DNA of 64,000 bases, from assembly GCF_016862575.1 (NCBI RefSeq), contig NZ_BONF01000005.1, positions 186,001 to 250,000 on the forward strand. Direction: 5' to 3'. The stretch's first letter is position 1, and each line of letters begins with the position of its first letter. The DNA is from Catellatospora bangladeshensis (GTDB taxonomy: Bacteria > Actinomycetota > Actinomycetes > Mycobacteriales > Micromonosporaceae). The position numbers and the translations under genes were made by a program. Below the pieces are notes generated by a model, which saw nothing but the letters and a program-made list of their open reading frames with translations, made no database searches and was not told the DNA's origin. Shown here piece by piece: positions 1,643 to 62,843 of the stretch.

Positions 1643-1703
1643 GATCGCAGTTTCGTGTCGAAAGGTGCGGCTGGACTCAAGGTTCAGACACGAGACCGCG
1701 ATC
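1643..1703. repeat. intergenic palindrome family A, copy 1
   Basis: Arms GATCGCAGTTTCGTGTC (1643-1659) and GACACGAGACCGCGATC (1687-1703) pair at 15 of 17 positions around a 27-base loop. Copies at 34432-34497 and 57062-57122 share both arms and most of the loop, so this is a dispersed element rather than a local hairpin. It lies just downstream of the preceding gene. Confidence 0.8.
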
Positions 1704-1731
1704 TTCGCCGCGAAGGCGGCCCTATACGGAA

Positions 1732-1764
1732 AGAGCCCCCGACCGGTGTCCGGTCAGGGGCTCT
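1732..1764 (-). terminator. terminator downstream of tRNA-Tyr
   Basis: A 15-base stem with one mismatch (AGAGCCCC...GGGGCTCT) and a three-base loop lies directly past the 3' end of the minus-strand tRNA. On the minus strand it is followed by a short T-run. It is probably also used by the convergent plus-strand gene. Confidence 0.75.
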
Positions 1765-1772
1765 TCTGCTGT

Positions 1773-1856
1773 TGGTGGCGGGTAGAGGATTCGAACCTCT
1801 GTAGCTTTCGCGACGGATTTACAGTCCGCTCCCATTGGCCGCTCGGGCAACCCGCC
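1773..1856 (-). tRNA. tRNA-Tyr (GTA anticodon)
   Basis: The minus strand folds as an 84-base cloverleaf. The 5' GGCGGGT pairs with ACCCGCC, followed by discriminator A and an encoded CCA at 1773-1775. The anticodon loop reads CTGTAAA, giving anticodon GTA for tyrosine. The T-arm has the GGTTCGAATCC core, and a long variable arm is present, as expected for bacterial tRNA-Tyr. A weak TTGCAC/TATCCT promoter pair is visible on the minus strand upstream (1902-1932), with a 19-base spacer. Confidence 0.95.
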
Positions 1857-1984
1857 TGGTCACAGCGCTGCCAGCACCATCTTCGCGGCGTTGGCTCGAT
1901 AAGGATAGCGGTACACGGGCGGCGATGTGCAACCGGGTTGGACCATGGGCACGCCGCGCCGCGGGATCTGCTAAAACGGTACGC

Positions 1985-2479
1985 ATGGCAGCTAACCCGT
2001 CGTTCGACATCGTCAGCAAGGTTGATCGGCAGGAGGTGGACAACGCGCTGCACCAGGCCGAGAAGGAGATGGGCACCCGGTTCGACTTCCGCGACACGGG
2101 AGCCTCCATCGCGTGGGCCGGCGAAGAGGGCGTCACGCTCCAGGCGAACACCGAGGACCGGGTCCGGGCCGCGCTGGACGTCTTCAAGGAGAAGCTGATC
2201 AAGCGGAACATCTCGCTCAAGTCGCTGGACGCGGGCGACCCGAAGGCCTCGGGCAAGACCTACAAGATCGACTGCAAGATCATCCAGGGCATCGACCAGG
2301 AGAAGGCCAAGGCGATCTCCAAGGCGATCCGGGACGAGGGCCCGAAGGGCGTGCAGGCGCAGATCCAGGGCGACCAGCTCCGCGTCACCGGCAAGAAGAA
2401 GGACGACCTCCAGGAGGTCATCGCCCTGCTCAAGGCCGGCGACTTCGGCGTGGCCCTTCAGTTCACCAACTACCGGTAG
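1985..2479 (+). CDS. yajQ: YajQ-family nucleotide-binding protein
   Basis: This 164-residue protein matches the YajQ/UPF0234 family over its full length: it begins with the family-type [10 protein letters not shown] and ends with [13 protein letters not shown]. Members have two ferredoxin-like domains and bind nucleotides; some homologues bind cyclic di-GMP and influence transcription. The protein has no signal peptide and should be cytoplasmic. No ribosome site is visible before the ATG, and TAAAAC lies seven bases upstream, so a leaderless start is likely. The gene stands alone between tRNA-Tyr and an acetyltransferase gene. Confidence 0.93.
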
Positions 2480-2560
2480 TCCCGTACGTCATGCCGGCGG
2501 TGGTCCAGCGGCTCGCCGCGGGGCCACCGCGCGGCCGCGAGCGGGCCTAGACTCCGCCGG

Positions 2561-2983
2561 GTGATCGTGCGAAGGGCCGGCGTGGCGGATGTGGCGGCGC
2601 TCGCCGAACTGCGCGGCATCGACGGGGACCAGCTCGAGCCGTTCGCCGCCTGGATGGCCGCCCGCGCGGAGACCTACCTGCCGTTCGCCGCCGAGATCGA
2701 CGGGCGGGTGGTCGGCGCCGCCTGGCTGCTCGTCGCGGAACGGGTGCCCGGCAACGGATCGCCGGAGCGGTGGTACGGCGACGTCCAGTCCGTCATGGTC
2801 CGCGAGGAGCACCGCGGCCGCGGCATCGGCGGCGCGCTGATGGCGGCGATCCTCGCCGAGGCCCGCAAGCGGGGGCTGCTGCACGTGACCGTCCACTCCG
2901 GCCGCCGCGCGGTCGACTTCTACCTTCGCAACGGCTTCAGCCACCACCGCCAGCTCCTGCTCTGGGAGCCGGACGCCTCCTGA
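2561..2983 (+). CDS. GNAT-family N-acetyltransferase
   Basis: This 140-residue single-domain GNAT protein should transfer an acetyl group from acetyl-CoA to an unidentified amine. The acetyl-CoA loop is clear (VREEHRGRGIGGAL, around residues 85-98), followed by the C-terminal beta-strand pair and FYLRNGF, the typical GNAT end. The GTG start is supported by a TAGACT hexamer at 2548-2553, seven bases upstream with no ribosome site, which suggests a leaderless message. It ends at a shared bidirectional terminator. The substrate cannot be read from sequence. Confidence 0.85.
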   Translation: MIVRRAGVADVAALAELRGIDGDQLEPFAAWMAARAETYLPFAAEIDGRVVGAAWLLVAERVPGNGSPERWYGDVQSVMVREEHRGRGIGGALMAAILAEARKRGLLHVTVHSGRRAVDFYLRNGFSHHRQLLLWEPDAS

Positions 2984-3012
2984 GCCGCCCGGCTCCCAGA
3001 GCAGGTGACGAG

Positions 3013-3056
3013 CGAGGCTCCCGCGATGCCGCCGACGCGGCAGGGCGGGAGCCTCG
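3013..3056. terminator. bidirectional terminator hairpin
   Basis: A perfect 12-base stem (CGAGGCTCCCGC with GCGGGAGCCTCG) lies between the convergent acetyltransferase gene and the G5/excalibur gene. Confidence 0.7.
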
Positions 3057-3078
3057 ATCAGCCGAGGGCGGGCCGGGC

Positions 3079-3810
3079 TCAGTCGCAGCCGATCCCGTCG
3101 CCGTCGCGGTCCAGGTCGTAGATGTCGGTGCCGATGACCTTCACCGGGCCGGTGACATACGCGGGGCCGTTGCCGCTGCCCCCGGCGCAGTCGACGTCGG
3201 AGGCGATGGGCACGCAGGCCCAGGCGTAGTTCGGGTCGCAGGAGGACGAGGACGTCGGCTTCGTGCCCACCAGGATGACCTTGGTGACCGGCTGCTTGGT
3301 GACCACCTCGCTGACCAGTGTCTTCGCGGTCTCCACGCCGTCGGTGTAGGTCACCTCGTAGGTGCGCGTCTTCACACCGTTCACGCCCGCCGTCTTGACC
3401 TTCGTCTTGCCCTTGGCCAGGTTCGGGTCGTTGACCCGGCGGGTCGAGTACGGGATCGCGGCCGTCTCGGTGACGGTGCGCTTCTCCACGAGAGCCGACG
3501 CGCTCGGCGCAGGAGTGACCTCACCGGCCTCGGCCACGGCCGACGGCGACGGGGAGGGCTCGCTGTTCACCACTGCCGCGGGCGCGGCCTGGCCGGCCGG
3601 GCGCCCGGCGTCCTGCGGCGGGTCGGTGAAGGCGCCGACGACGACGAGCCCGCCGCAGCAGGCGAGCAGCATGGCGACGAAGCCGCCGCCGAAGAGCAGG
3701 AGGGCTTTCTGGCCAACGCGCAGGCTCGCGAGGAAGCCCCGCCGCGGGGCCGTGGGCGGCAGGTACCACTGCTGGGTGTGCTGCGGGCCGTGGGGAGGGA
3801 GATTCGTCAC
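3079..3810 (-). CDS. membrane-anchored G5 and excalibur domain protein
   Basis: This is a 243-residue predicted surface protein. After a short proline-rich cytoplasmic start there is one membrane segment (around LLLFGGGFVAMLLACCGGLVVVGAF). A Pro/Ser-rich linker and a G5-like domain follow (KRTVTETAAIPYSTRRVNDP to VVTKQPVTKVILVGTK). The C-terminus is an excalibur calcium-binding motif (DLDRDGDGIGCD). G5 domains are linked to glycan binding in cell-wall proteins, so a role at the wall is likely. The GTG at 3810 is preferred because CAGACT lies six bases before it; an ATG at 3840 would add ten residues. Confidence 0.8.
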   Translation of the reverse strand: MTNLPPHGPQHTQQWYLPPTAPRRGFLASLRVGQKALLLFGGGFVAMLLACCGGLVVVGAFTDPPQDAGRPAGQAAPAAVVNSEPSPSPSAVAEAGEVTPAPSASALVEKRTVTETAAIPYSTRRVNDPNLAKGKTKVKTAGVNGVKTRTYEVTYTDGVETAKTLVSEVVTKQPVTKVILVGTKPTSSSSCDPNYAWACVPIASDVDCAGGSGNGPAYVTGPVKVIGTDIYDLDRDGDGIGCD

Positions 3811-3994
3811 CGCCGCAGTCTGGCCCGGTGGGATCCCCATCGATAACCGAGAAACCCGGTGCCGTTTCGTGCCCGGCAGGGGCGTTCGACCGGTTTCCGG
3901 GCCGCCCCGGGAGCGGCTCGGCCACCAACGGTGTGCGAGCCGTCACCGCGCAGCGCCCTCCGGCAGCTCGGCTCGGCGGACGGACGATCGGCGC

Positions 3995-4669
3995 TCAGGC
4001 GAAGGGGTCGCGGGCGAAGTCCCGGAGGCGCTCGGCGACCACGAACGAGCTCTCGGTCGCCTCCGTACGGGGGCGGCCCCGGGTGATGGCGTCGGCGAGC
4101 GCGGTGAGCTGCGCGGCGGGCAGCATGGCGAGTCCGGCGCCGCGCAGGGGCAGGGTGAGCTGCACGCCGGAGCGCGGGTCGGCGGCGTGGAGCACCTGCA
4201 CGCGGTGGTAGCTGCGCGCCTCGCCGGTGCCGACGGCCTGCAGCTGGGAGCCGCCGGTGACGATCGAGGTGGCCAGGTCGGCGGTCTTGCTGCCGAGCGC
4301 GCCGCGCACGGTGAGCACGGTGCCCTCCAGCCAGGCGGCGGTGCGCCATACCCGCAGCACCATGTAGCCGGCGACGAGGATGACGAGCAGGGCGCATGCG
4401 GCACCGGCGAGGCCGATGACACTGACGCCGCCGGCGAGGCTGGAGCCGGGGTCGGGGGCGGGGCCGGGGACCAGGTTGCCGTTGTCGTCGACGTGCCACT
4501 CGCCGTCGCCGATGGTGGAGTTCACGGTCGTGCGGGCGAAGAACGAGAAGCCGAACGCGAGCACCGCGACCAGCACGCTTCCGGCGATCATGAAGGCGGC
4601 CACCACGGTGGCGAAGATCTTGATGCCGGTGGGTACACCGATCGACAGGGCGAGCCTGGGCTGCGACAT
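3995..4669 (-). CDS. two-helix membrane protein with C-terminal cytoplasmic domain
   Basis: This 224-residue protein has two hydrophobic helices (about residues 17-45 and 83-107) separated by a loop of about 38 residues, probably extracytoplasmic. A cytoplasmic beta-rich part follows (EGTVLTVRGALGSKTADLA ... SYHRVQVLHAADP) that could be a PH-like fold. I do not recognise a named family. The start is supported by TAGGCT at 4677-4682, seven bases upstream of ATG, with no ribosome site. The gene lies downstream of htpX in the same direction, but a strong terminator separates them. Confidence 0.65.
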   Translation of the reverse strand: MSQPRLALSIGVPTGIKIFATVVAAFMIAGSVLVAVLAFGFSFFARTTVNSTIGDGEWHVDDNGNLVPGPAPDPGSSLAGGVSVIGLAGAACALLVILVAGYMVLRVWRTAAWLEGTVLTVRGALGSKTADLATSIVTGGSQLQAVGTGEARSYHRVQVLHAADPRSGVQLTLPLRGAGLAMLPAAQLTALADAITRGRPRTEATESSFVVAERLRDFARDPFA

Positions 4670-4700
4670 GGCGCGCAGCCTATCGGGTGCACGCCACAGG

Positions 4701-4731
4701 GAAAGGCCCCGCCAGCAGGGCGGGGCCTTTC
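4701..4731 (-). terminator. terminator downstream of htpX
   Basis: A perfect 13-base stem (GAAAGGCCCCGCC with its complement) and a five-base loop follow the htpX stop codon closely. Confidence 0.8.
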
Positions 4732-4744
4732 GGTGACAGCGACG

Positions 4745-5620
4745 TCAGCGCATGTACTGGATGGGGCCGGAGCTGGCCGCCATCGCCTCCAGGCGCCGCA
4801 CCCGCTCCTCCATCGGCGGGTGGGTGGAGAACATGTTCGCCAGGCCACCGCCCTTGAGCGGGTTGTCGATCATCAGGTGGGCGGAGCTGGCGAGCTGGCC
4901 CTCGGCGGGCAGCGGCATCTGCTGTACCCCCATGTGGATCTTCTTGAGGGCGCTGGCCAGCGCGAGCGGGTCGTTGGTCAGCTGGGCGCCGGACGCGTCG
5001 GCCTGGAACTCCCGGCTGCGGCTGATCGCGAGCTGGATGACGGTCGCCGCCATCGGGCCGAGGATCAGCATCATGAGCATGGCCAGCGGGTTGGGGCCGT
5101 CCTCGTCGTCCCCGCCGATCGGCAGGAACCACGCCAGGTTGGCCAGCATGGTGATGATGCCGGCGAGCGCGCCGGCGACGCTGGAGATCAGGATGTCGCG
5201 GTTGTACACGTGCGACAGCTCGTGGCCGATGACCGCGCGCAGCTCGCGGTAGTCGAGGATGCGGGTGATGCCCTCGGTCACCGCGACCGCGGCGTGCTCC
5301 GGGTTGCGGCCGGTGGCGAAGGCGTTGGGCTGCATGGTCGGGCTGACGTACAGGCGGGGCATGGGCTGGCCCGCCTGCTGGGAGAGTTCGCGCACCATCT
5401 GGTAGAGCTGGGGGAACTCCGCCTCGCTGACCGGTTGGGCGCGCATCGAGCGCAGCGCGAGTTTGTCCGAGAAGAAGTAGCTCACTCCGTTCATCAGCAG
5501 CGACACGATCACCGCGATGAACAGGCCCGTGCTGCCCCCGAGCCAGTAGCCGATCGCCAGGATGATGCCGGTCAGCAGGCCGAGCAGCGCTGCCGTCTTC
5601 AGACCGTTGTGGCTGTGCAT
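4745..5620 (-). CDS. htpX: membrane zinc metalloprotease HtpX
   Basis: This 291-residue protein is the M48B protease HtpX, which degrades damaged membrane proteins. Two N-terminal membrane helices (about 8-50) precede the catalytic domain. The zinc motif HELSH is at 133-137 and the third ligand Glu lies in RSREFQAD (around 204). Two further hydrophobic segments follow the zinc motif. The ATG at 5620 has a GGAGGGAAGG ribosome site immediately upstream, which decides against the longer frame from 5719. The length matches the family. It is transcribed alone. Confidence 0.95.
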   Translation of the reverse strand: MHSHNGLKTAALLGLLTGIILAIGYWLGGSTGLFIAVIVSLLMNGVSYFFSDKLALRSMRAQPVSEAEFPQLYQMVRELSQQAGQPMPRLYVSPTMQPNAFATGRNPEHAAVAVTEGITRILDYRELRAVIGHELSHVYNRDILISSVAGALAGIITMLANLAWFLPIGGDDEDGPNPLAMLMMLILGPMAATVIQLAISRSREFQADASGAQLTNDPLALASALKKIHMGVQQMPLPAEGQLASSAHLMIDNPLKGGGLANMFSTHPPMEERVRRLEAMAASSGPIQYMR

Positions 5621-5743
5621 ACCTTCCCTCCGTCGATGGCGCGGCGTGGGCCGCGCATCAGGTGCAACGGATACCTCCGGTAGCCACCTTCCCGATGTGA
5701 GCTGGGAACATGCTGACAATCAGCCTAATCACCGCCGTATGCG

Positions 5744-5779
5744 CGAACGCCCAGGTCGTGAACACGGCCTGGGCGTTCG
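5744..5779 (-). terminator. terminator of the nuoIJKLMN operon
   Basis: A perfect 12-base stem (CGAACGCCCAGG with CCTGGGCGTTCG) and a 12-base loop lie just past the nuoN stop codon. Confidence 0.7.
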
Positions 5780-5793
5780 TGGTGTGGGCGAGG

Positions 5794-7308
5794 TCACCGC
5801 CAGGCGGTGACGGCGGCGTAGACGAGCTGCGGCGCCACGGTGAGCACCACCCCGGCGGCGGTGGCGAGCGCGAGCGCCGCGGCGGGGGCCCAGTGCGCGG
5901 GGGCGGCGTCGGCCGGGGTGTCGGCGGCGCGGTAGAGGGCCGCGACGGGACGCCAGTACACGGCGAGGCCGATGACGGAGACGAGCGCCACGAGCAGGGC
6001 GAGCCGGTAGGAGTCGACGCTCAGCAGCGCCTGGATCACCGTGATCTTGGCGAACAGCCCGGCCAGCATCGGCGGCAGCCCGGCCAGGCCGACCAGCGCG
6101 AAGGTCAGCGCGGCAGCCCGCCAGGGCGCGCCCCGGCCCAGGCCGTGCAGGTCGGCCAGGGTGCCGCCGTCGGCCGCGCCCGGCCGCAGCGCCACCACCG
6201 CGCTGAACGCGGCCAGCTCCAGCACCAGGAAGAACACGGTGTAGACGAGCGCCGCGTCGAGCAGCCCGTCGACCGGACCGGCGAGCGCGAGCCCGGCCAG
6301 CCCGCCCAGCGGCGCGAGGATGAACCCGGCCTGCGCGACCGACGACCAGGCCAGCAGCCGGACCGTGCGGCGCTGGCGCAGTGCGACCAGGGTGCCGACC
6401 AGCATGGACAGCGCCGCGAGCACGGCCAGCGTGATCCCGGCGGTGACGAACATGCTCCGGTCGTCGCCCGCCGCGCCGGTGGCCAGCACCCCGTCCACCA
6501 CGATCAGGATCGCGGCCACACCGCCGAGCTTGGAGGCGGTGGACAGGAACGCGGCGACGGGCACCGGCGCGCCCTCGTACGTGGCGGGCGCCCAGGCGTG
6601 CAGCGGCACGGCGGCCACCTTGAAGCCGAGCCCGACCAGGATCAGCGCCAGGCCGGTCAGGGCGACGGGTCGCCAGTCGTCCCCGGCGAACAGCGGCGCG
6701 GAGACCAGACCGCGCAGCTGCACGGTGCCCGAGGCCAGGTAGAGCAGCGCGGCGCCGAGCAGGGTCACCGCGGTGGCGACCACGCTGGTGGCGAAGAACG
6801 TCACCGAGGCAGCCGCGGCCGTGCCGGCCCGCCGCCGGTGCAGCGCCACCAGGGCGTACAGCGGGACGGTCAGCGTCTCCAAGGCCACGATCAGGGTGAT
6901 CAGGTCACCGGCGGCGGCAAGCGCGACGCCACCGGTCATCGCGCACGCGAACAGGAACACCGTCTCGCCCGCGGGCGAGTCGCCGCGGCGCAGCGCCGGG
7001 GCGTAGAGCAGCAGCGCCCCCACGGTCAGCGCGGCGACCAGCACGGTGATCAGGCGGGCGCGCGCGTCGTAGACGTACGCGCAGTCCACCGGCATGACCT
7101 CGGTGCCGCCGGGCGCGGCCAGCCCGGCGCAGAAGGTGCCGATCTGGCGCGGCTGCACCGCGAACGCGGCCGCGGCGGTGAGCGCCGCCCCGGCCAGCGC
7201 GACCCCGTACGGCCAGCGCCAGCGGGGCTGGGTGAACAGGTCCACGACCAGTGCCGCGAGCGCCGTCCCGGCCGCGACCAGCAGCGGCAGCATCATCTGG
7301 AGGTTCAC
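5794..7308 (-). CDS. nuoN: NADH-quinone oxidoreductase subunit N
   Basis: NuoN is one of three antiporter-like proton-pumping membrane subunits of respiratory complex I. The 504-residue protein is a multi-helix membrane protein. The charged residues expected for pumping are present: Glu144 (VALETLTVPLYAL), Lys230 (GLGFKVAAVPLHAWAP) and Lys260 (STASKLGG). The GTG start at 7308 overlaps the nuoM stop as GTGA, indicating translational coupling. It is the last gene of a nuoIJKLMN run and is followed by a hairpin terminator. Confidence 0.95.
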   Translation of the reverse strand: MNLQMMLPLLVAAGTALAALVVDLFTQPRWRWPYGVALAGAALTAAAAFAVQPRQIGTFCAGLAAPGGTEVMPVDCAYVYDARARLITVLVAALTVGALLLYAPALRRGDSPAGETVFLFACAMTGGVALAAAGDLITLIVALETLTVPLYALVALHRRRAGTAAAASVTFFATSVVATAVTLLGAALLYLASGTVQLRGLVSAPLFAGDDWRPVALTGLALILVGLGFKVAAVPLHAWAPATYEGAPVPVAAFLSTASKLGGVAAILIVVDGVLATGAAGDDRSMFVTAGITLAVLAALSMLVGTLVALRQRRTVRLLAWSSVAQAGFILAPLGGLAGLALAGPVDGLLDAALVYTVFFLVLELAAFSAVVALRPGAADGGTLADLHGLGRGAPWRAAALTFALVGLAGLPPMLAGLFAKITVIQALLSVDSYRLALLVALVSVIGLAVYWRPVAALYRAADTPADAAPAHWAPAAALALATAAGVVLTVAPQLVYAAVTAWR

Positions 7309-24537: not shown

Positions 24538-24541
24538 GCGC

Positions 24542-30323: not shown

Positions 30324-30384
30324 GTTGATCATGAACTTATGGCACGGTTCGACGGCGCGTCATGGCCATAACTTCATGATCAAC
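30324..30384. repeat. intergenic palindrome family C, copy 1
   Basis: Left arm GTTGATCATGAACTTATGGC (30324-30343) pairs almost perfectly with 30364-30384 around a 20-base loop. It starts six bases after a stop codon. Related copies are at 30724-30785 and, partly, at 35882-35923. Confidence 0.8.
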
Positions 30385-30418: not shown

Positions 30419-30712
30419 TTAGTTGATGGCGGTGGGGGCGACCTTGTCGCCGCGGAAGGGGACGCCCTCGGCGGTGAGGCGGCGGCGGGCCTCGTTCTCG
30501 TGGCCGGGAGGCAGGCGGCCGCCCGCGCCGACGACGCGGTGCCAGGGGACGCCGCCGCCGTGGCGCGCCATGATCGTGCCGACCCGGCGGGCCGAGTTGC
30601 GCCCGGACTCGTCGGCCAGGGCGTCGGCGATCGCGCCGTAGGTCATCACCCGCCCGGACGGGATCCGCTCGACCATGCGCAGCACCGCTTCGGTGTACTC
30701 CTCCGGAGTCAT
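30419..30712 (-). CDS. alkyltransferase-like (ATL) DNA repair protein
   Basis: This 97-residue protein is the DNA-binding domain of O6-alkylguanine methyltransferases. Where the repair enzyme has PCHR, this protein has PWHRVV (residues 56-61), replacing the acceptor cysteine with tryptophan. That is the hallmark of ATL proteins, which bind O6-alkylguanine and hand the lesion to nucleotide excision repair. RIPSGRVMTYGAIA and the Arg-finger region SARRVGTIM are intact. The gene sits alone between two copies of repeat family C. Confidence 0.9.
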   Translation of the reverse strand: MTPEEYTEAVLRMVERIPSGRVMTYGAIADALADESGRNSARRVGTIMARHGGGVPWHRVVGAGGRLPPGHENEARRRLTAEGVPFRGDKVAPTAIN

Positions 30713-30723: not shown

Positions 30724-30785
30724 AGTTGACCAGGAACCTGGGCACACGACACGCCGTCGACCCGTGCCACAAGTTCATGATCGAC
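30724..30785. repeat. intergenic palindrome family C, copy 2
   Basis: This is a more degenerate copy: AGTTGACCAGGAACCTGGGC at the left pairs imperfectly with the right arm ending AAGTTCATGATCGAC. The central CGACACGCCGTCGACC matches the reverse complement of copy 1 and the core of copy 3. Confidence 0.65.
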
Positions 30786-30853: not shown

Positions 30854-31969
30854 ATGCGTGCGGTAGTCACCCGGGCTCGGCGGGTGGTCGTGAAGGTGGG
30901 GTCGTCGTCGTTGACGACCGCTGCCGGGGGGTTGGATCCGGAGCGGTTGGCGGCGCTGGTGGGGGCGCTGTGTGCCGTGGGTGAGCGGGACGGGCAGCGC
31001 GAGGTCGTGCTGGTGTCGTCCGGGGCGATCGCGGCGGGGCTGGCGCCGCTGGGGCTGTCGAAGCGGCCCCGTGATCTGGCCACGCAGCAGGCGGCGGCCA
31101 GCGTGGGCCAGGGGCGGCTGATGCACGCGTACACCGAGGAGTTCGGCCGGCACGGCCGCACCGTCGGGCAGGTGCTGCTGACCGTCGACGACGTGACCCG
31201 GCGCAAGCACTACCGCAACGCGTACCGGACGCTGCGCAAGCTGCTGGACATGCGGGCCGTCCCGATCATCAACGAGAACGACACGGTCGCCACCGAGGAG
31301 ATCCGGTTCGGCGACAACGACCGGCTGGCGGCCCTGGTGGCCGCGCTGGTCCAGGCGGACCTGCTGGTGCTGCTGTCGGACGTGGACGCCCTCTACACCG
31401 GGCACCCGTCGCAGCCGGACTCCCGCCGGGTCGCCGAGGTGACCGACTTCGCGCAGCTGGCGAGTGTGTCGGTGAGCGGTGCGGGCAGTGCGGGGGTGGG
31501 CACCGGCGGCATGGTCACCAAGGTCGAGGCGGCCCGGATCGCGTCCGACGCGGGCATCCCGGTGGTGCTGACCGCCGCCCCTCTCGCGGCGGCGGCCCTG
31601 ACCGGCGACGACGTCGGCACGCTGTTCCATGCGGCGGGGGTACGCGCGACCGCCCGCCTGCACTGGCTCGCCCACGCCACCACGGCGCGCGGCCGCCTGC
31701 ACCTCGACGAGGGCGCCGTGGCCGCCGTGGTGGGCCGCCGCGCCTCCCTGCTCCCGGCCGGCATCACCCGCGTGGACGGCGCCTTCACCGCCGGCGACCC
31801 GGTGGACCTGGTCGACGTCGCGGGCCGCGCGGTGGCCCGGGGCCTGGTCAACTACGACGCCCTGGAGCTGCCCACCCTGCTCGGCCGCTCCACGGTCGAA
31901 CTCGCCGCCACCCTCGGCCCCGCCTACGAGCGCGAGGTAATCCACCGCGACGACCTGGTGCTGCTGTAA
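30854..31969 (+). CDS. proB: glutamate 5-kinase
   Basis: ProB phosphorylates glutamate, the first and feedback-regulated step of proline synthesis. The 371-residue protein has the amino-acid kinase domain ([50 protein letters not shown]) and a C-terminal PUA domain (about 285-371, beginning [12 protein letters not shown]). The ATG lacks a clear ribosome site; CAGAAT sits six bases upstream, suggesting a leaderless start. proA follows, but a family B hairpin separates them. obg, which often precedes proB in actinobacteria, is absent here. Confidence 0.95.
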
Positions 31970-32019
31970 GGAAGGGCACCTTCTTAACGCTATGTGTAGA
32001 GGAAGGGCACCTTCCTAAC
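31970..32019. repeat. intergenic hairpin family B, copy 1
   Basis: Two units of about 20 bases (GGAAGGGCACCTTCTTAAC and GGAAGGGCACCTTCCTAAC) flank a ten-base spacer. The element starts immediately after the proB stop and lies before the proA ribosome site. Confidence 0.8.
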
Positions 32020-35776: not shown

Positions 35777-35881
35777 GACCATATTCTCGCTCGCCAGGGT
35801 AGGGAATGCCATGATCTCCAACCCCGTGGGATGCGAATTGCATCACGGGCCCCACCGGGAATTTCGATCACGGTCCCGGGG

Positions 35882-35923
35882 TCGCGACACGCCGCCGAAC
35901 ACGCCCCTAAGTTCATGATCAAC
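35882..35923. repeat. intergenic palindrome family C, partial copy 3
   Basis: Only the loop core (CGCGACACGCCGCCGAACAC) and the right arm (TAAGTTCATGATCAAC) are well preserved. The left arm is degenerate. It lies between DUF3152 gene 1 and moeZ. Confidence 0.6.
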
Positions 35924-46184: not shown

Positions 46185-46253
46185 CGATCTTGCGCGGACT
46201 GTGGGTGCGACACGCGCTAAACGGACATATGGGCAACACTTCGCGCAAGATCG
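46185..46253. repeat. intergenic palindrome family E
   Basis: Perfect 12-base arms CGATCTTGCGCG (46185-46196) and CGCGCAAGATCG (46242-46253) flank a 45-base loop. A degenerate fragment resembling its left end lies at 46143-46170. It sits between convergent genes. Confidence 0.7.
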
Positions 46254-48760: not shown

Positions 48761-48812
48761 AAGGAAGGGCACCTTCTTAACGCTTTACGTAGAGGAAGGT
48801 GCCCTTCTTAAC
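48761..48812. repeat. intergenic hairpin family B, copy 2
   Basis: AAGGAAGGGCACCTTCTTAA and GGAAGGTGCCCTTCTTAAC are inverted relative to each other and can pair into a stem of at least 11 bases around TACG-type spacer sequence. It begins at the SDR stop codon. Confidence 0.8.
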
Positions 48813-49750: not shown

Positions 49751-50686
49751 ATGCGCCCCCGGCTCGACTCGCTCACCATCGCCGCCGTCACCGTGGCGAT
49801 CATCGCCGTCTCGTCCTCCGGGGCCCTCATCGCGTACGCCGCCGCGCCCGCGCTGGCCATCGCGTTCTGGCGCAACGCCCTCGCGGTGGGCGTGCTCGCC
49901 CCGGTCACCCTCACCCGCCGCCGCGGCGAGCTGCTCGGCCTGCGCGAGGGCCGGGCCTGGCGGTGGAGCGTGCTGGCCGGCGTCGCGCTCGCCGCGCACT
50001 TCGCGACCTGGGTGCCCAGCGTCAAGATGACCACCGTGGCGACCGCGACCGCGCTGGTGGCCACCCAGCCGATCTGGGCCGGCCTCATCGCGCTCGGGCA
50101 GGGCCGCCGCCTCGGCCGCTGGACCTGGCTGGGCATCGGCACCGCGGTCGCGGGCGCCGCGATCGCCACCGGGGCCGACTTCACCCGCGGGGGTACGGCG
50201 GTGGCCGGTGACCTGCTCGCGGTGGCCGGAGGACTGCTCGCGGCGGTGTACACGGCGCTCGGCGAGAAAGCGCGGGAGCGGACGACCACCACGACGTACA
50301 CGACGGTCTGCTACTCGGTCTGCGCCCTGGTCCTGCTCGCGGTGTGCCTGCTCTTCGGGGTGGGACTCACCGGTTTCGACGACCAGACGTGGCTGGCGAT
50401 CATCGCGCTTACGGCGGGCGCGCAGCTGCTCGGGCACTCGATGTTCAACTACGCGCTGCACAAGATCTCGGCGACCACGATCAGCGTGCTGATCCTGCTG
50501 GAGGTGCCCGGCGCGGCGCTGCTCGGCTGGGCCTGGCTGGACCAGGTGCCGCCCGCCGCCGCCTGGCCCGGCATCGCCCTGCTCACCGGCGGCGTCGCCC
50601 TGGTCATCCTCGACGCCCGCCGCCCCGCCGCCCTCCCCACTCCCGACCCCGTCGACGTCGACCTGCCCGTGCCCGGCAAGCGTTAA
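49751..50686 (+). CDS. EamA-type (DMT) membrane transporter
   Basis: This 311-residue protein has about ten membrane helices in two EamA repeats. Landmarks are YAAAPALAIAFWRNALAVG in the first half and AGAQLLGHSMFNYALHKISATTISVLILLEVPGAALLGW in the second. Exporters of amino acids or metabolites belong here, but the substrate cannot be predicted. CAGGAT lies eight bases before the ATG. The last codons and the stop lie within repeat family B copy 3, so the C-terminal Lys-Arg is repeat-derived. Confidence 0.88.
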   Translation: MRPRLDSLTIAAVTVAIIAVSSSGALIAYAAAPALAIAFWRNALAVGVLAPVTLTRRRGELLGLREGRAWRWSVLAGVALAAHFATWVPSVKMTTVATATALVATQPIWAGLIALGQGRRLGRWTWLGIGTAVAGAAIATGADFTRGGTAVAGDLLAVAGGLLAAVYTALGEKARERTTTTTYTTVCYSVCALVLLAVCLLFGVGLTGFDDQTWLAIIALTAGAQLLGHSMFNYALHKISATTISVLILLEVPGAALLGWAWLDQVPPAAAWPGIALLTGGVALVILDARRPAALPTPDPVDVDLPVPGKR

Positions 50687-50733
50687 GAAGATGCCCTTCC
50701 TCTACGCATAGCGTTAAGAAGGTGCCCTTCCTT
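50681..50733. repeat. intergenic hairpin family B, copy 3
   Basis: CGTTAAGAAGATGCCCTTCC and GTTAAGAAGGTGCCCTTCCT flank CTACGCATAG. The TAA in the first unit is the stop codon of the EamA gene. The spacer is identical to that of copy 4. Confidence 0.8.
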
Positions 50734-54456: not shown

Positions 54457-54537
54457 CTTGATCGTCCGACTTGCCTGGCACTTGTGCGTATCTTGGGCGC
54501 GCTTTCGCCCACGTGCCTGGCAAGTTGGATGATCAAG
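54457..54537. repeat. intergenic palindrome family D, copy 1
   Basis: The outer arms CTTGATCGTCCGACTTGCCT and the complement of GGCAAGTTGGATGATCAAG pair almost fully, and the inner part GGGCG...CGCCC forms a second stem. It lies between convergent mrp and tatB. The whole 80-base element recurs in reverse orientation at 62766-62843. Confidence 0.85.
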
Positions 54538-56340: not shown

Positions 56341-56421
56341 TGACCTGCCCTCCGTCCGTTCCCCGGCTTCAGGATGGCACGGTTTCAACGTGAGAATTCA
56401 CTGTTCACGGAAGGTGCATCA

Positions 56422-57036
56422 ATGACGACGCTGCATCGGCAGGCCGGCAGCGCGGGCGACTTCGTCGCGACGTTCGTCCCTGAGGACGTGATCGCGCAGA
56501 CCGCGCGCGGACTGGCCGTCGAGGTGGGCCTGCACCCCGTCGCGCCGTCGGCCGGCGCGGCCCTGCGCATGCTGGCCGCCGCCTGCGGGGCGAAGGCGGT
56601 CGTCGAGATCGGCACGGGCACCGGCGTCAGCGGGCTGTGGCTGCTGCGCGGCATGCGCCCCGACGGCGTGCTCACCACGATCGACCTGGAGGCCGAGCAC
56701 CAGCGCATGGCCCGGCGGCTGTTCGTCGAGGCCGGTTTCTCCAGCTCGCGGGCCCGGGTGATCACCGGGCGGGCGCTGGAGGTGCTGCCCCGGCTGGCCG
56801 ACGGGGCGTACGACCTGATCTTCGTCGACGCGGACGCGACCGAGTACGCCGCATTCGTCGACGCGGCCGCCCGGCTGCTGCGTCCCGGCGGCCTGGTGGT
56901 GCTGCACGGCGTGCTGACCAGCGGGCGCGACGTGTTCACGGTGCGCGAGCTGGCGCAGAGCGTCCGCGACAGCGACCTCTGGCAGCCCGCGGTGCTGCCC
57001 CTGGGCGAGGGCCTCCTGGCCGCCGTCCGCGTCTGA
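56422..57036 (+). CDS. O-methyltransferase (class I, SAM-dependent)
   Basis: This 204-residue protein resembles the catechol-type O-methyltransferases next to sigE in actinobacteria (Rv1220c in M. tuberculosis). The SAM site VVEIGTGTGVSGLWLLRGM lies at about 58-76, and FVDADATEYAAFVDAAARLLRPGG supplies the metal-binding Asp region. The substrate is unknown. The ATG has AAGG eight bases upstream. It is divergent from htrA with 81 bases between. Confidence 0.9.
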   Translation: MTTLHRQAGSAGDFVATFVPEDVIAQTARGLAVEVGLHPVAPSAGAALRMLAAACGAKAVVEIGTGTGVSGLWLLRGMRPDGVLTTIDLEAEHQRMARRLFVEAGFSSSRARVITGRALEVLPRLADGAYDLIFVDADATEYAAFVDAAARLLRPGGLVVLHGVLTSGRDVFTVRELAQSVRDSDLWQPAVLPLGEGLLAAVRV

Positions 57037-57061
57037 CCCCGGCTCCCGGCTCCCGGCTGAT

Positions 57062-57122
57062 GATCGCGGTTTCGTGTCACAAAGTGCGGTCTAGCGCTGG
57101 GTTATGACACGAACCCGCGATC
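57062..57122. repeat. intergenic palindrome family A, copy 3
   Basis: Arms GATCGCGGTTTCGTGTC (57062-57078) and GACACGAACCCGCGATC (57106-57122) pair at 16 of 17 positions. The 27-base loop is in the same orientation as copy 1. It lies 25 bases after the O-methyltransferase stop. Confidence 0.85.
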
Positions 57123-57167
57123 ATGGCGGGCCGAGCCCGCCGAACCGGGCGCCCCGGCCCCGCCGGA

Positions 57168-57220
57168 CGTTAAGAAGGGCACCTTCCTCTACGCATAGCG
57201 TTAAGAAGGTGCCCTTCCTT
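57168..57220. repeat. intergenic hairpin family B, copy 4
   Basis: CGTTAAGAAGGGCACCTTCC, spacer CTACGCATAG and GTTAAGAAGGTGCCCTTCCT can fold into a long stem. It lies eight bases past the stop of the minus-strand aminopeptidase gene. Confidence 0.82.
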
Positions 57221-57228
57221 CGCCTCGG

Positions 57229-58680: not shown

Positions 58681-59021
58681 TACCTGCCCCTTCACAGCCT
58701 GTACCGAGGGCGTTCACACCGCCGACCGCCTGACCCTATCGCGCCGCCCCGGTCGCCGGCCGCGACGGAGGCAGGTGTGCGCGCCCCGTCCCGCGGGGGT
58801 TCGCCGTGGCCGCGGCGGAATCGGGACGGGGATGTTTCCCGCTGGTCAGGAGGGTGTTACTGCGGGGGGGTGTGAACGGCGAGGCGTCCGCGCCGGGCGA
58901 GGACGCCGTGCCGAGGAGGGGTGGGTCGGGTTCGGCCGGGTGGGGCCAGTGGAACGCCTGGCGGCCGTCGCGGAGACGGGCCGCCGGCGGGCGCACCACC
59001 GGCGCCGGCCGGTCCCGTTTG
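58681..59021. other. intergenic region, nothing recognised
   Basis: About 340 bases between two minus-strand genes. Open frames on the plus strand are low-complexity Arg/Gly shadows without start signals. It should contain the promoter of the aminopeptidase gene, but I cannot place it. Confidence 0.45.
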
Positions 59022-59189
59022 TCAGCCGACGGCCAGCTTGAGCGCCTCGCCCAGGGCAGTGGCCTCGTCTGGTGTCATCTCCACCACAAGCCGCCCGCCG
59101 CCCTCCAGCGGCACGCGCATGACGATTCCCCGGCCCTCTTTCGTGACCTCCAGCGGACCGTCGCCCGTCCGCGGCTTCATCGCCGCCAT
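59022..59189 (-). CDS. DUF3117 small conserved protein
   Basis: This 55-residue protein (MAAMKPRTGDGPLEVTKEGR at the start, ALGEALKLAVG at the end) matches DUF3117, which is nearly invariant across actinobacteria (Rv1211 in M. tuberculosis). Function is unknown. A GGGGAGA ribosome site precedes the ATG. In mycobacteria it neighbours tagA, as it does here apart from the intervening paaX genes. Confidence 0.95.
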   Translation of the reverse strand: MAAMKPRTGDGPLEVTKEGRGIVMRVPLEGGGRLVVEMTPDEATALGEALKLAVG

Positions 59190-59426
59190 GTGTGTCTCCC
59201 CTCAGACTTGCCAGTTCTGCACCCGGGATGGAATGCAAGACTCGGCGGGTCTCCCCGCCTGCTCCACCGCCGAAACATCGCGAGGCCGCGTTTCCACGGC
59301 CGGTCACGATGCGTCACCGGTGTACGCCTTCCGGCACCCCGTGTGGTTGGGTGGGACCACACGTTCGGGTGCCGACCAATGATTTTCCCTGATGGACTCC
59401 GCTAAGCCCAAACCGGGCCGGTCACG

Positions 59427-59467
59427 TTGTGACATCATCTCGCCAGCGCAGTTCACATCTGTCACAA
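59427..59467 (+). promoter_or_regulatory. candidate operator upstream of paaX
   Basis: Perfect inverted arms TTGTGACA (59427-59434) and TGTCACAA (59460-59467) are 33 bases apart centre to centre, about three helical turns. The second arm lies ten bases before the paaX ATG and overlaps the likely -10, an arrangement expected for autorepression by a dimeric or tetrameric regulator. Confidence 0.5.
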
Positions 59468-59476
59468 TCACCCCTC

Positions 59477-60268
59477 ATGCAGGCCCGTTCCGCACTATTC
59501 GACCTCTACGGCGATCACCTGCGGCAACGCGGCGGCCGGGCCACCATCGCGGCCCTCATCCGGCTGCTCGCGCCGCTCGGCATCGCCGCACCGGCGGTGC
59601 GCACCGCGGTGTCCCGCATGGTGCGACAGGGCTGGCTCTCCCCGGTGCGGCTGGAGGCCGGACCCGGCTACCAGCTCTCCCCGCGGGCGGTGCGCCGGCT
59701 CGACGAGGCCGCCGCCCGCATCTACCGCACCGGCCGCAGCTCCTGGGACGGCCACTTCGACCTGCTGGTGGTCAGCCCACCCGAGGCGCGGGCCGAGCGC
59801 GACCGGCTCTCCGCCGACCTCACCTTCCTCGGATACGGCCGCCTGGAGAGCGCGGTGTGGCTCGCCGCCCGCCCGGCCGGCGAGGTCGATCAGCTGCTCA
59901 CCGACGCCGGGGTGCGCTTCGAGCGCTTCTCCGCCGCGCACGTCGGCGGGGAGAACGGCGCCCGGCAGCTGATCATGAGAGCGTGGAACGTCTCCGCGGT
60001 CGGTGCCGCGTACGCCGGGTTCGTCGCGCAGCTCACGCCGGTGGTGAGCGCGGTGACCCGGCTGACCGACGACCGCACCGCGTACGCCGCCCGGTGCGCC
60101 CTCGTGCACGCCTGGCGGGCGTTCCTCTTCCGCGACCCGCAGCTGCCCGCCTCGCTGCTGCCCCCGGACTGGCCCGGCACCGCCGCGGCCGCGTTCTTCG
60201 ACCGGCAGGCCGCCCGGCTGCGGCCCGCCGCCGACCGTTTCGTCGATCACTGCCTCAGGGAGAGCTGA
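59477..60268 (+). CDS. paaX: PaaX-family transcriptional repressor
   Basis: This 263-residue protein matches PaaX, the phenylacetyl-CoA-responsive repressor family. An N-terminal winged helix (ATIAALIRLLAPLGIAAPAVRTAVSRMVRQGWL, about 22-55) is followed by the PaaX central domain and a C-terminal domain with LPASLLPPDWPG. The stop overlaps the next ATG as TGATG, so the enoyl-CoA hydratase is co-translated. No other phenylacetate genes are nearby, so the effector here may be a different acyl-CoA. Confidence 0.9.
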   Translation: MQARSALFDLYGDHLRQRGGRATIAALIRLLAPLGIAAPAVRTAVSRMVRQGWLSPVRLEAGPGYQLSPRAVRRLDEAAARIYRTGRSSWDGHFDLLVVSPPEARAERDRLSADLTFLGYGRLESAVWLAARPAGEVDQLLTDAGVRFERFSAAHVGGENGARQLIMRAWNVSAVGAAYAGFVAQLTPVVSAVTRLTDDRTAYAARCALVHAWRAFLFRDPQLPASLLPPDWPGTAAAAFFDRQAARLRPAADRFVDHCLRES

Positions 60269-61053
60269 TGTCCGCACCGCTGCTCGTCGACCGCGCCGAG
60301 GGCGTCGTCACCGTCACGATGAACCGTCCCGAGTCGCTGAACTCGCTGGACGTCGCGCTCAAGGAGGCGCTTCGGGAGACCTTCCTGGAGCTGGCCGCCG
60401 ACGCCGGCTGCCGGGCCGTGGTGCTGACCGGCGCCGGTCGCGCCTTCTGCGTCGGGCAGGACCTGCGCGAGCACGTCGCCGCGCTGGGCGGGGACGCCCC
60501 GCTGGACACCGTCGAGAAGCACTACAACCCGCTCGCGCTGGCCCTGGCCGAGCTGCCCAAGCCCGTCGTGGCCGCGGTGCGCGGCGCCGCCGCGGGGGCC
60601 GGGGCGGGCCTGGCCTTCCTGTCCGACCTGCGCATCGGCGGCCCCTCGACGTCGTACCTGATGGCCTTCGCCCGGGTCGGCCTGGCCGCCGACACCGCCG
60701 TCTCGTGGACCCTGCCCCGGATGGTGGGCAGCGCCAAGGCAGCCGAGCTGCTGCTGCTCGCCGAGCCGGTGCCCGCCGCCGAGGCCGCCCGCCTGGGCCT
60801 GCTGACCCGGCTGGTCGAGGACGACGAGCAGGTGCTGCCCGCCGCGCAGGAGCTGGCCGCGCGGCTGGCCGCCGGGCCCACCGTGGCGTACGGGCAGATC
60901 AAGCGCGAGCTGCTGCACGGCGCCACCGGCACCCTCGCCGACGCCCTCGACGTCGAGCTGGCCGCGCAGACCGTCTCGGGCCGCACCGCGGACCACCGCG
61001 ACAGCACCCACGCCTTCGTCGCCAAGCAGAAGCCCGTCTTCCACGGCGCGTGA
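60268..61053 (+). CDS. enoyl-CoA hydratase/isomerase family protein
   Basis: This 261-residue crotonase-fold protein should act on an acyl-CoA. The oxyanion-hole loops are GRAFCVGQDLREH and AAVRGAAAGAGAGLAFLSDLR. The position of the usual catalytic glutamate is occupied by AADTAVSWTLPRMVG, with Asp as in PaaG-type isomerases. Co-translation with paaX supports a role in ring-derived or phenylacetyl-type acyl-CoA metabolism. The exact reaction is not certain. Confidence 0.9.
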   Translation: MSAPLLVDRAEGVVTVTMNRPESLNSLDVALKEALRETFLELAADAGCRAVVLTGAGRAFCVGQDLREHVAALGGDAPLDTVEKHYNPLALALAELPKPVVAAVRGAAAGAGAGLAFLSDLRIGGPSTSYLMAFARVGLAADTAVSWTLPRMVGSAKAAELLLLAEPVPAAEAARLGLLTRLVEDDEQVLPAAQELAARLAAGPTVAYGQIKRELLHGATGTLADALDVELAAQTVSGRTADHRDSTHAFVAKQKPVFHGA

Positions 61054-61077
61054 GCCCCGTCCCGCAGCCGTCGCGGC

Positions 61078-61278
61078 TCAGTCCTCTTCCGGGTCCAGGG
61101 GCGCGACGCCGTCGGTGACGTACGCACTCATCTGCAGTTCGTCACCGGCGGGCGAGACGTAGGCGGGCAGCTCGTCCGGGCCGAGCTCGGTGACGTACCG
61201 CCAGTACTCCCGGACGGCCTCCTCCGGGGACTCCGCCTCGATCGGCAACGCGACGCTGACCAGCCACTCCCTACGCAC
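61078..61278 (-). CDS. small hypothetical protein
   Basis: This is a 66-residue acidic protein of unknown function. The N-terminus (VRREWLVSVALPIEAESPEEAVREYWRYV) looks like a strand-helix unit, with an acidic end (APLDPEED). The GTG start has TGGGAT six bases upstream. It lies 12 bases downstream of tagA in the same direction and is probably co-transcribed with it. Confidence 0.65.
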   Translation of the reverse strand: MRREWLVSVALPIEAESPEEAVREYWRYVTELGPDELPAYVSPAGDELQMSAYVTDGVAPLDPEED

Positions 61279-61290
61279 CCGTTCATCCCA

Positions 61291-61872
61291 TCACAGGCGT
61301 TTCGCGGCGACGTGGCAGCCCGCCAGATGGTCGTCGACCATGCCGGTGGCCTGCATCAGCGCGTACGCGGTGGTGGGCCCGACGAAGCGCAGACCGCGCT
61401 TCTTCAGGTCCTTGGCCATGGCGGTCGACTCGGCCGTCACGGCGGGCACGTCGGCCCGGGTCGCGGGCCGGGGCCGCCGCGCCGGGTCGGGGGCGTACGA
61501 CCACAGCAACGCGCTCAGCCCGCCGGGCAGCCCCAGCACCACCCGGGCGTTGTGCAACGTCGCCTCGATCTTGGAACGGTTGCGCACGATGCCCGCATCG
61601 CCGAGCAGCCGGTCCACGTCGGCGGACCCGAACCCGGCCACGGTCTCGATGTGGAACCCGGCGAACGCCGCCCGGAACGCGGGCCGCTTGCGCAGGATCG
61701 TGATCCAGGACAGGCCGGACTGGAACGCCTCCAGGCTCACCCGCTCGAACAGGGCGTCGTCGCCGCGCAGCGGCGTGCCCCACTCCTCGTCGTGGTACGC
61801 CCGGTACTCCGGAGCGCTCGCCGCCCACGCGCAGCGGGCCTTGCCGTCCTCCCCGACGATAAGGTCGTTCAC
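61291..61872 (-). CDS. tagA: DNA-3-methyladenine glycosylase I
   Basis: TagA removes 3-methyladenine from alkylated DNA in base-excision repair. The 193-residue protein has the family start RCAWAASAPEYRAYHDEEWG with the conserved Cys and zinc-binding His, the catalytic-region Glu in FERVSLEAFQSGLSWITIL, and the C-terminal zinc residues (DDHLAGCHVAAK). The GTG start has GGGGGCAAGAGG upstream. Rv1210 holds the same position in mycobacteria. Confidence 0.95.
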   Translation of the reverse strand: MNDLIVGEDGKARCAWAASAPEYRAYHDEEWGTPLRGDDALFERVSLEAFQSGLSWITILRKRPAFRAAFAGFHIETVAGFGSADVDRLLGDAGIVRNRSKIEATLHNARVVLGLPGGLSALLWSYAPDPARRPRPATRADVPAVTAESTAMAKDLKKRGLRFVGPTTAYALMQATGMVDDHLAGCHVAAKRL

Positions 61873-61914
61873 CCTCTTGCCCCCTTACCAGAACGCGAAT
61901 AGCCTTCGGAACCC

Positions 61915-62766
61915 ATGACGCTCCCGGACTTCCCACCTGTGGTGCTGTACTCGGTGCCGCTGTTCATTCTGCTCATGGTCCTCGAACGGGTGTCCTACCG
62001 GTTCCATCCCGACGAGGACGAGATCGGGTACGGGCTGAAGGACAGCGCCACGAGCATCGGCATGGGCCTGGGCAGCCTGGGCTGGGACGTCCTGTGGGGC
62101 CTGGGCACCGGCCTGGCCACCGCGGCGGTCTTCGAACTCACCCCGCTGCGCATCCCGTTCGCCTGGTGGGCGCTGCCGCTGTTCCTGATCGCGCAGGACT
62201 TCTGCTACTACTGGTCGCACCGCGGCCACCACGTCATCCGCCTGCTGTGGGCGTCGCATGTGGTGCACCACTCGTCCCGGGCGTTCAACCTGTCCACGGC
62301 GCTGCGTCAGTCCTGGACCGGCTTCACCGGCTTCATGTTCTACCTGCCGCTCGCGGCGCTGGGCGTCAACCCGGCGATCACCGCCTTCTGCGGCGGCATC
62401 AACCTGCTGTACCAGTTCTGGATCCACACCGAGCGCATCGACCGCATGTGGCGGCCGTTCGAGTTCGTGTTCAACACGCCCTCGCACCACCGCGTGCACC
62501 ACGCCTCGCAGGGCAGCTACCTGGATCGCAACTACGGCGGCATCCTGATCGTCTGGGACCGGATGTTCGGCTCGTTCGCGCCGGAGCTGGAGCGCCCCGT
62601 GTACGGCCTCACCAAGAACATCGAGACCCACAACCCGCTGCGGGTGGCCTATCACGAGTACGCGGCCATCCTCCGCGACCTGCGCCGCCGCCGCGTCACC
62701 CAGTGGCCCGCCACCCTGCTCCGCGGCCCGGGCTGGTCCCCGGCCGACCCGGAGCGCCCCGTCTAG
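61915..62766 (+). CDS. sterol desaturase / fatty acid hydroxylase-type membrane protein
   Basis: This 283-residue protein is a diiron membrane oxygenase of the fatty acid hydroxylase superfamily. Histidine boxes are SHRGHHVIRLLW, HVVHHSS and HHRVHHAS, with a further WIHTE. Several membrane helices precede and separate them. The lipid substrate is unknown. TAGCCT sits nine bases before the ATG. The TAG stop overlaps the first base of repeat family D copy 2. Confidence 0.88.
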   Translation: MTLPDFPPVVLYSVPLFILLMVLERVSYRFHPDEDEIGYGLKDSATSIGMGLGSLGWDVLWGLGTGLATAAVFELTPLRIPFAWWALPLFLIAQDFCYYWSHRGHHVIRLLWASHVVHHSSRAFNLSTALRQSWTGFTGFMFYLPLAALGVNPAITAFCGGINLLYQFWIHTERIDRMWRPFEFVFNTPSHHRVHHASQGSYLDRNYGGILIVWDRMFGSFAPELERPVYGLTKNIETHNPLRVAYHEYAAILRDLRRRRVTQWPATLLRGPGWSPADPERPV

Positions 62767-62843
62767 ATCGCTCGACTTGCCAGGCACATGGGCGAAAGGG
62801 CGTCCAAGATACGCCCATGTGCCAGGCAAGTCGGACGATCAAC
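62766..62843. repeat. intergenic palindrome family D, copy 2 (inverted)
   Basis: GATCGCTCGACTTGCCAGGC at the left pairs with GCCAGGCAAGTCGGACGATC at the right. Its reverse complement aligns with copy 1 along the entire length, including the inner GCGTATCTTGG and CTTTCGCCCA segments. It lies between convergent genes. Confidence 0.85.

What the first reader, a model, noticed from the sequence alone, without database searches (positions are those of the whole stretch)
1643..62843. Several families of dispersed GATC-bounded palindromes in intergenic DNA
Families A, C, D and E differ in sequence but share a design: 12-25 base inverted arms with GATC close to the outer ends, a conserved internal loop, and placement near gene ends. 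Within a family the loop is conserved as well as the arms, and copies occur in both orientations (A2 and D2 inverted), which ordinary terminators would not show. This suggests short mobile or formerly mobile elements, or a class of structured 3' RNA elements, possibly spread by one mechanism that recognises GATC-containing ends.
Basis: partly seen in the sequence, partly recalled or inferred. Interest (0 to 1): 0.8.

Follow-up and report, generated by a model that had tools for sequence, protein, structure and literature searches.

The report
GATC-tagged palindromes at gene ends
A soil actinobacterium carries hundreds of short hairpin-like DNA repeats just behind its genes; they come in several families of fixed length that begin and end with GATC, and evolution has kept that tag almost untouched, which points to a function rather than leftover mobile DNA.

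Summary
Confirmed and extended. The window (Catellatospora-like, Micromonosporaceae) holds nine elements of four families: A 61 nt (three), C 55 nt (three), D 75 nt (two), E 67 nt (one). In 1.11 Mb of the genome 115 copies were found, 108 with GATC at both ends. Symmetric GATC-bounded pairs pile up at 61, 75, 67 and 55 nt; a TCGA control does not.

They sit 3' of genes: convergent gaps 53 (19 expected), divergent 7 (34 expected). Gene ends with such an element have fewer U-tract terminators (8 of 128 against 52 of 320).

Against a congener with about 96% identity, 98 of 106 mapped copies have the same family at the orthologous place. GATC changed in 1 of 608 positions (A, D, E); other element columns in 9.3%, outside DNA about 30%. 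This is selection in place, bounded by GATC. No clear insertion site was seen, and the own genome has no Y1 (RAYT-type) transposase match.

Family A arms covary in the true register, clearly in one congener, weakly in the own genome. Its core varies between species while 61 nt and GATC stay.

Best reading: REP-like transcribed 3'-end hairpins with a new tag; what reads the tag is unknown. New variant of a known kind.

The parts
1643..1703 (+). family A copy 1, 61 nt, between a + gene end and tRNA-Tyr (-)
   Evidence: orthologue in G007 at 97% identity
34434..34494 (-). family A copy 2, 61 nt, inverted relative to copy 1
   Evidence: present in G007, no A element in G002, G008, G004, G003
57062..57122 (-). 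family A copy 3, 61 nt, convergent gap, next to a B element
   Evidence: present in G007 with 77% identity, no A element in the other four
30327..30381 (-). family C copy 1, 55 nt, convergent gap
   Evidence: by inspection a C element is present at the orthologous gap in all 5 congeners examined
30728..30782 (+). family C copy 2, left end GACC instead of GATC, in a divergent gap; with copy 1 it flanks an alkyltransferase-like gene
   Evidence: by inspection present in all 5 congeners examined
35866..35920 (+). family C copy 3, left arm not complementary to right arm
   Evidence: C elements in G007, G002 and G003, none in G008 and G004
46186..46252 (-). family E copy, 67 nt, convergent gap
   Evidence: many matches of roughly 90-150 bases to it elsewhere in G000 and G007
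54460..54534 (+). family D copy 1, 75 nt, convergent gap
   Evidence: D present in G007; in G002 the gap holds a C element, in G008 61-nt GATC palindromes, in G004 and G003 neither was seen
62766..62840 (-). family D copy 2, 75 nt, inverted relative to copy 1, convergent gap
   Evidence: present in G007, no D element in G002, G008, G004, G003

Best explanation
These are REP-like palindromic repeats of a GATC-tagged kind. Each family is a hairpin-forming element of fixed length whose two ends are GATC; in A and D the bases just outside are A/T, A/T, G/C.

Shown: dispersed families, fixed lengths, gene 3'-end placement, conservation in place, near-invariance of GATC, fewer U-tract terminators where an element sits, arm covariation in family A.

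Inferred: they are transcribed with the upstream gene and act at the RNA 3' end, ending or protecting the transcript, mostly between convergent genes; a sequence-specific factor reads the GATC base of the hairpin; they spread by copying earlier in the genus and are now inherited vertically under selection.
For: Placement: 116 A/C/D/E copies in 1.11 Mb by the first profiles, 114 in classed gaps: convergent 53 (expected 19.4), tandem 54 (60.4), divergent 7 (34.1); in tandem gaps 47 are closer to the 3' end and 7 to the 5' end.

Terminators: gene ends with an A/C/D/E element have a U-tract terminator outside it in 8 of 128, ends with only B or F in 0 of 53, ends without any in 52 of 320.

Selection in place: 98 of 106 mapped copies have the same family at the orthologous place in G007. 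With each G007 copy used once, GATC columns changed 1/248 in A, 0/168 in D, 0/192 in E; other columns 234/1643, 101/1407, 80/1416. Substitution outside GATC is 0.12-0.18 for three positions, then 0.27-0.45.

Rigidity: half-sites facing each other within 100 bp stand at span 61 in 45 of 47 (A), 75 in 24 of 24 (D), 67 in 23 of 23 (E).

Hairpin: in G002 (all 50 sites that one search printed) the family A columns 12-24, which the search pattern left free, show an excess of 74 Watson-Crick pairs in the true register, -10 to +14 in slid ones, and 44 after thinning to 28 rows; in G000 columns 7-11 show +25 (slid -10 to +5). Nine of ten folds of window copies beat all 200 shuffles.

Orientation to the gene in tandem gaps, same:opposite: A 19:5, C 1:8, E 3:10.
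Against: In G000 columns 12-24 of A show no excess pairing (+4), D a weak one (+7), E none (+1); with G-U allowed, jointly variable columns give 411 vs 400 (A), 184 vs 195 (D), 93 vs 90 (E). Between A orthologues most arm changes are one-sided (126; 33 two-sided, 7 of them paired in both genomes). In C the left arm is often unpaired. There is no U-tract: families differ in what follows GATC. The orientation bias of A is not seen in convergent gaps (11:12), and D is 3:5 in tandem gaps. No transcript data were available. Gene calls come from my own simple caller.
Confidence: 0.5

Rival explanations
1. Duplex-DNA binding sites: a dimeric protein reads two half-sites at fixed spacing and acts as a transcription roadblock or chromosome-organising mark between convergent genes.
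For: Rigid half-site spacing and almost no single half-sites; invariant blocks separated by columns that in G000 vary largely independently; A/T, A/T, G/C outside GATC in A and D, unpaired across the element, with TA rare in A (1 of 94); 14 of the 19 listed direct offsets of A half-sites are 104-108 bp, near ten helical turns.
Against: Register-specific arm covariation in family A, strong in G002; orientation bias to the gene in tandem gaps for A, C and E; no candidate protein identified (only the neighbours of seven divergent copies were looked at).
Confidence: 0.27
2. Neutral remnants of miniature mobile elements (MITE or REP/REPIN type) that simply survive where insertion does no harm, behind genes.
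For: Many copies, several families, patchy presence among congeners and different cores in different congeners; placement matches that described for GTAG and CGTC REPs (PMC3733652 section 15); one absence in G007 that leaves a single GATC.
Against: Elements evolve more slowly than their flanks (median identities 0.85-0.97 against 0.67-0.80) and GATC is nearly frozen; no recognised duplications; no Y1 transposase match in G000.
Confidence: 0.15
3. Ordinary intrinsic terminators whose similarity is chance.
For: Stable hairpins at gene ends.
Against: Exact family sequences and lengths, zero hits in G000 for control patterns, length peaks, no U-tract.
Confidence: 0.02

Closest known systems
GTAG- and CGTC-tagged REPs (PMC3733652: abstract, section 15 and passages seen)
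   Same: Short palindromic repeats in high copy, several families per genome, a constant tetranucleotide tag, placed downstream of genes in convergent and tandem gaps and less in divergent ones.
   Different: Tag is GATC, at both ends and base-paired, not unpaired at one end; lengths 55-75 nt against 20-40; the words Actinobacteria, Micromonospor- and GATC do not occur in that paper's main text.
REP plus TnpA-REP/RAYT systems (PMC8266576: passages seen)
   Same: Hairpin plus tetranucleotide as a joint recognition unit; family-specific stems.
   Different: No Y1 match in G000; the closest congener G007, with the same families, has one Y1 gene but no element within 1.5 kb of it; at ten Y1 loci only one weak partial C match.
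Intrinsic terminators
   Same: Hairpins behind genes; ends with an element have fewer U-tract terminators.
   Different: No U-tract, repeated sequence families, fixed lengths, near-invariant GATC.

Membership tests
REP (tagged type) | High-copy palindromic repeats in intergenic DNA | tested here: met
REP (tagged type) | GTAG or CGTC tag, unpaired, at one end | tested here: not met
   Tag is GATC at both ends in 108 of 115 copies, and self-complementary
REP (tagged type) | Placement 3' of genes, few in divergent gaps | tested here: met
REP/RAYT | Cognate Y1 transposase in the genome, flanked by repeats | tested here: not met
   PF01797: 0 matches in G000 (115 contigs, so gaps are possible); matches in 7 of 21 genomes; at ten Y1 loci with 1.5 kb flanks only one weak partial C match
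MITE | Target-site duplication or clean empty sites | tested here: inconclusive
   No clear case in 5 of 6 printed absences; one leaves a single GATC
Intrinsic terminator | Hairpin followed by a U-tract | tested here: not met
Intrinsic terminator | Transcripts end there | not testable with these tools
   no RNA data
Known Rfam family | Match to a covariance model | tested here: not met
   In the window only tRNA is above its gathering score; the two D copies score 30 against mir-584 (gathering 80) and another stretch 30 against mir-9223 (gathering 53)

The most novel reading that the evidence does not exclude
One factor that reads GATC at the base of a hairpin (a nuclease, a domesticated transposase or an RNA-binding protein) defines gene 3' ends in Catellatospora through hundreds of dedicated sites of four fixed lengths: a tag-specified, protein-dependent alternative to U-tract termination whose core sequence is rewritten between species while tag and length stay.
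Probability: 0.25. Interest if true: 0.85.

Novelty: new variant of a known kind. Interest (0 to 1): 0.62.

Why it matters
Tagged REPs have been sorted into GTAG and CGTC kinds, predominantly in Proteobacteria (PMC3733652 abstract). A GATC kind in an actinomycete genus, with the tag at both ends, fixed lengths and strong selection on the tag in place, separates 'mobile tag' from 'functional tag' and makes the question of what such repeats do directly testable by 3'-end mapping. It also bears on how transcripts end in this genome, where my scan finds U-tract terminators at few gene ends.

Tried and rejected
RAYT/Y1 transposase as present mover: not found in G000. Clean empty sites: none clear among the printed absences, one ambiguous. 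Rfam: nothing but tRNA above threshold. An early conclusion that arms do not covary was revised after Watson-Crick tests with slid registers and a second species; both sides are reported. One search used 36 of the G002 rows and one search used 47; one search uses all 50 printed, and its figures replace theirs. In one search several A copies in tandem arrays shared one G007 partner (37 pairs, 31 partners); one search counts each partner once. The palindrome scan with several tetramers did not discriminate, because it counts chance repeats in GC-rich coding DNA; one search replaces it. Genes beside seven divergent copies gave no common regulator by inspection. The core-agnostic A pattern outside the genus gives 0-8 hits per genome, 12 and 20 in two, and those listed are mostly not palindromes. 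The orientation bias of C and E puts their shared GACACG stretch on opposite RNA strands, so I do not treat it as one RNA motif. The script stopped after its first tables.

Papers: searches. No paper on GATC-tagged repeats of Micromonosporaceae appeared in the listed results of those searches. PMC12306157 and PMC5765111: passages only.

Full report
WHAT IS THERE. The window is G000:C5:186001-250000 of an 8.83 Mb genome in 115 contigs. A family D pattern scan of named genomes returned 8 stretches, all Catellatospora, so I take the genus to be Catellatospora; the genome itself is unnamed. The nine copies are listed under parts; palindrome families without the tag (B in the window, F elsewhere) are placed alike.

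COUNTS. By iterated profile search, 1.11 Mb of G000 (contigs C5, C8 and C11 in part) holds A 48, C 15, D 25, E 27 (B 56, F 13); GATC stands at both ends in 46, 13, 23 and 26 of them. Whole-genome patterns in G000: A 213 forward and 210 reverse hits, where each palindrome can score on both strands; A, core-agnostic 61-nt form, 159 sites; C 91 hits; D 145 and 146 half-site hits; E 71 and 64. Reversed control patterns gave 0 in G000 in each.

FIXED LENGTH. Facing half-sites within 100 bp lie at an outer span of 61 bp in 45 of 47 cases for A (one at 62, one at 96), 75 in 24 of 24 for D and 67 in 23 of 23 for E; 1 of 96 A half-sites has no facing partner within 200 bp. Over fetched DNA of seven genomes of the genus, own included, symmetric GATC-bounded pairs number 238: 86 of length 61, 49 of 75, 45 of 67, 10 of 55; the TCGA control gives 82 with no length above 8.

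BOUNDARY. Outside GATC the first base is A or T in 93 of 94 A ends and 47 of 48 D ends, the second in 88 and 43, and the third is C or G in 90 and 48. C ends read A/G, mostly A, mostly C; E ends mostly G, any, C. Over all 223 ends C is first once and A is third once. These flanking bases do not pair across the element in A and D. Between G000 and G007 orthologues the substitution fraction is 0.12, 0.16 and 0.18 at the first three outside positions, 0.27 at the fourth, and 0.29-0.45 further out (92 elements; 2 pairs dropped for lacking GATC at both ends).

SELECTION IN PLACE. G007 is a congener in one contig, about 96% identical over the aligned 338 kb of C5. Of 115 A/C/D/E copies in G000, 9 could not be mapped; of the other 106, 98 have the same family at the orthologous place and 8 do not (A 6, E 2). 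In tandem A arrays several G000 copies map to one G007 copy. Using pairs of at least 65% identity and each G007 copy once (A 31, C 12, D 21, E 24 pairs), GATC columns changed in 1 of 248 (A), 0 of 168 (D), 0 of 192 (E); other columns in 234 of 1643, 101 of 1407 and 80 of 1416. For C the profile starts at the A of GATC, so its 0 of 96 refers to ATCA and GATC (others 86 of 552). Median element identity is 0.85-0.97 against 0.67-0.80 for the adjoining 30 bp. Family A's nearly frozen blocks are GATCG, CGTGTC, GACACG and CGATC. A caveat: orthologues were found by profile, which could miss copies that decayed; the 8 non-shared and 9 unmapped sites bound that loss.

MOBILITY. Six of the eight absences were printed. 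In five the missing stretch is larger than the element and its ends are away from GATC. In one (C11:316525) G007 keeps a single GATC followed by the same four bases as the right flank, which could be a GATC-to-GATC loss or chance. By inspection C1 and C2 are occupied in all five congeners examined; A2, A3, D1 and D2 are occupied by the same family only in G007, and several of the other gaps hold another hairpin or another GATC element (the output for E1 was cut). PF01797 (Y1 transposase) has no match in G000, one in G007, and matches in 7 of 21 genomes searched; ten such loci with 1.5 kb flanks hold no element apart from a weak partial C match at the edge of one.

SPECIES-SPECIFIC CORES. With the core left free, the 61-nt A form occurs in 11 of 11 genomes of the genus, 37-241 sites each (control 0, one genome 1). 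In 44 G000 copies columns 13-17 are invariant but for one position in one copy; in the printed sites of G001 and G002 the core is mixed (CGTGTC, CGGGTC, GCGGTC, CCGGTC and others, mostly with the complement opposite). Outside the genus the pattern falls to 0-8 hits per genome, two higher, though G036 shows two real-looking 61-nt palindromes with another sequence. Family C reaches 15 of 150 genomes in 3 of 44 genera; E is absent by its pattern from three of eleven genomes.

STRUCTURE. In G000, with G-U allowed, jointly variable columns showed no excess pairing over shuffles for A, D or E. With Watson-Crick pairs and whole arms the picture is mixed. In G002 (all 50 printed of 98 sites) columns 12-24, which the pattern left free, show an excess of 74 pairs in the true register against -10 to +14 in slid ones; 44 remain after thinning to 28 rows; columns 25-30 show none. 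In G000 A shows +25 in columns 7-11 (slid -10 to +5) but only +4 in 12-24; D +7 (slid -2 to +3); E +1. In G001 (25 printed of 241 sites) columns 12-24 show 250 pairs against 220 expected. Shuffles ignore relatedness; slid registers and thinning guard against that. Between orthologues most changes are one-sided. So pairing matters but is loosely kept, while GATC is tightly kept. In 9 of 10 folds of window copies (E folded on both strands) no shuffle did as well; C3 is the exception with 24 of 200.

PLACEMENT AND FUNCTION. Convergent gaps hold 53 (expected 19.4 by length), tandem 54 (60.4), divergent 7 (34.1); tandem copies lie nearer the upstream gene's end in 47 of 54. Ends with an A/C/D/E element have a U-tract terminator outside it in 8 of 128, with only B or F in 0 of 53, without any in 52 of 320; masking the element shortens the searched DNA somewhat. 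Orientation to the gene (same:opposite) in tandem gaps is A 19:5, C 1:8, E 3:10, D 3:5; in convergent gaps, with respect to the nearer gene, A 11:12, C 1:3, D 6:9, E 4:7. All seven C pairs within 1 kb found in G000 and G007 together are in the -,+ order, conserved arms outward (some are orthologues of each other).

READING. The placement equals that described for GTAG and CGTC REPs (PMC3733652). What differs is the tag, its presence at both ends inside the stem, the length, the host group and the missing transposase. I therefore file this as working like REPs, not as a member of either tagged superfamily. The most likely role is a transcribed 3'-end hairpin; the frozen GATC suggests that something reads the tag itself. 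A duplex-DNA site remains a serious rival.

Noticed in passing
31969-32016, 48762-48809, 50674-50732, 57172-57219: Family B: AAGGAAGGGCACCTTC..., no GATC, 56 copies in 1.11 Mb, median 9 bp from a gene end and mostly oriented with the gene; in one congener, and in G003, the orthologue of 48762 carries an extra internal stretch.
   Followed up: partly
elsewhere in the genome, e.g. L036:12986-13049: Family F: CAGTTTCGGGGAAAGTGCA palindromes, also at gene ends; 13 in 1.11 Mb.
   Followed up: partly
L068:2888-3050 and offsets: Tandem family A copies often stand 104-108 bp apart, and one locus has A half-elements in a row.
   Followed up: no
gap corresponding to window 57062-57220 in G002 and G003: The A3/B4 gap holds a different long palindrome (GGCCTATCTC...GAGATAGGCC) in two congeners, another candidate repeat family.
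   Followed up: no
G036:C250:4310-4370 and G036:C471:6369-6429: Two 61-nt GATC-bounded palindromes with a quite different arm (GATCGTTGTCACG) in another genus of the family.
   Followed up: no
window 30419-30712: Small alkyltransferase-like gene (PF01035) flanked by C1 and C2; both C sites are occupied in all five congeners examined.
   Followed up: partly
families C and E: Both contain a GACACGCC stretch next to a GGG step, hinting at common descent or a shared binding motif.
   Followed up: no
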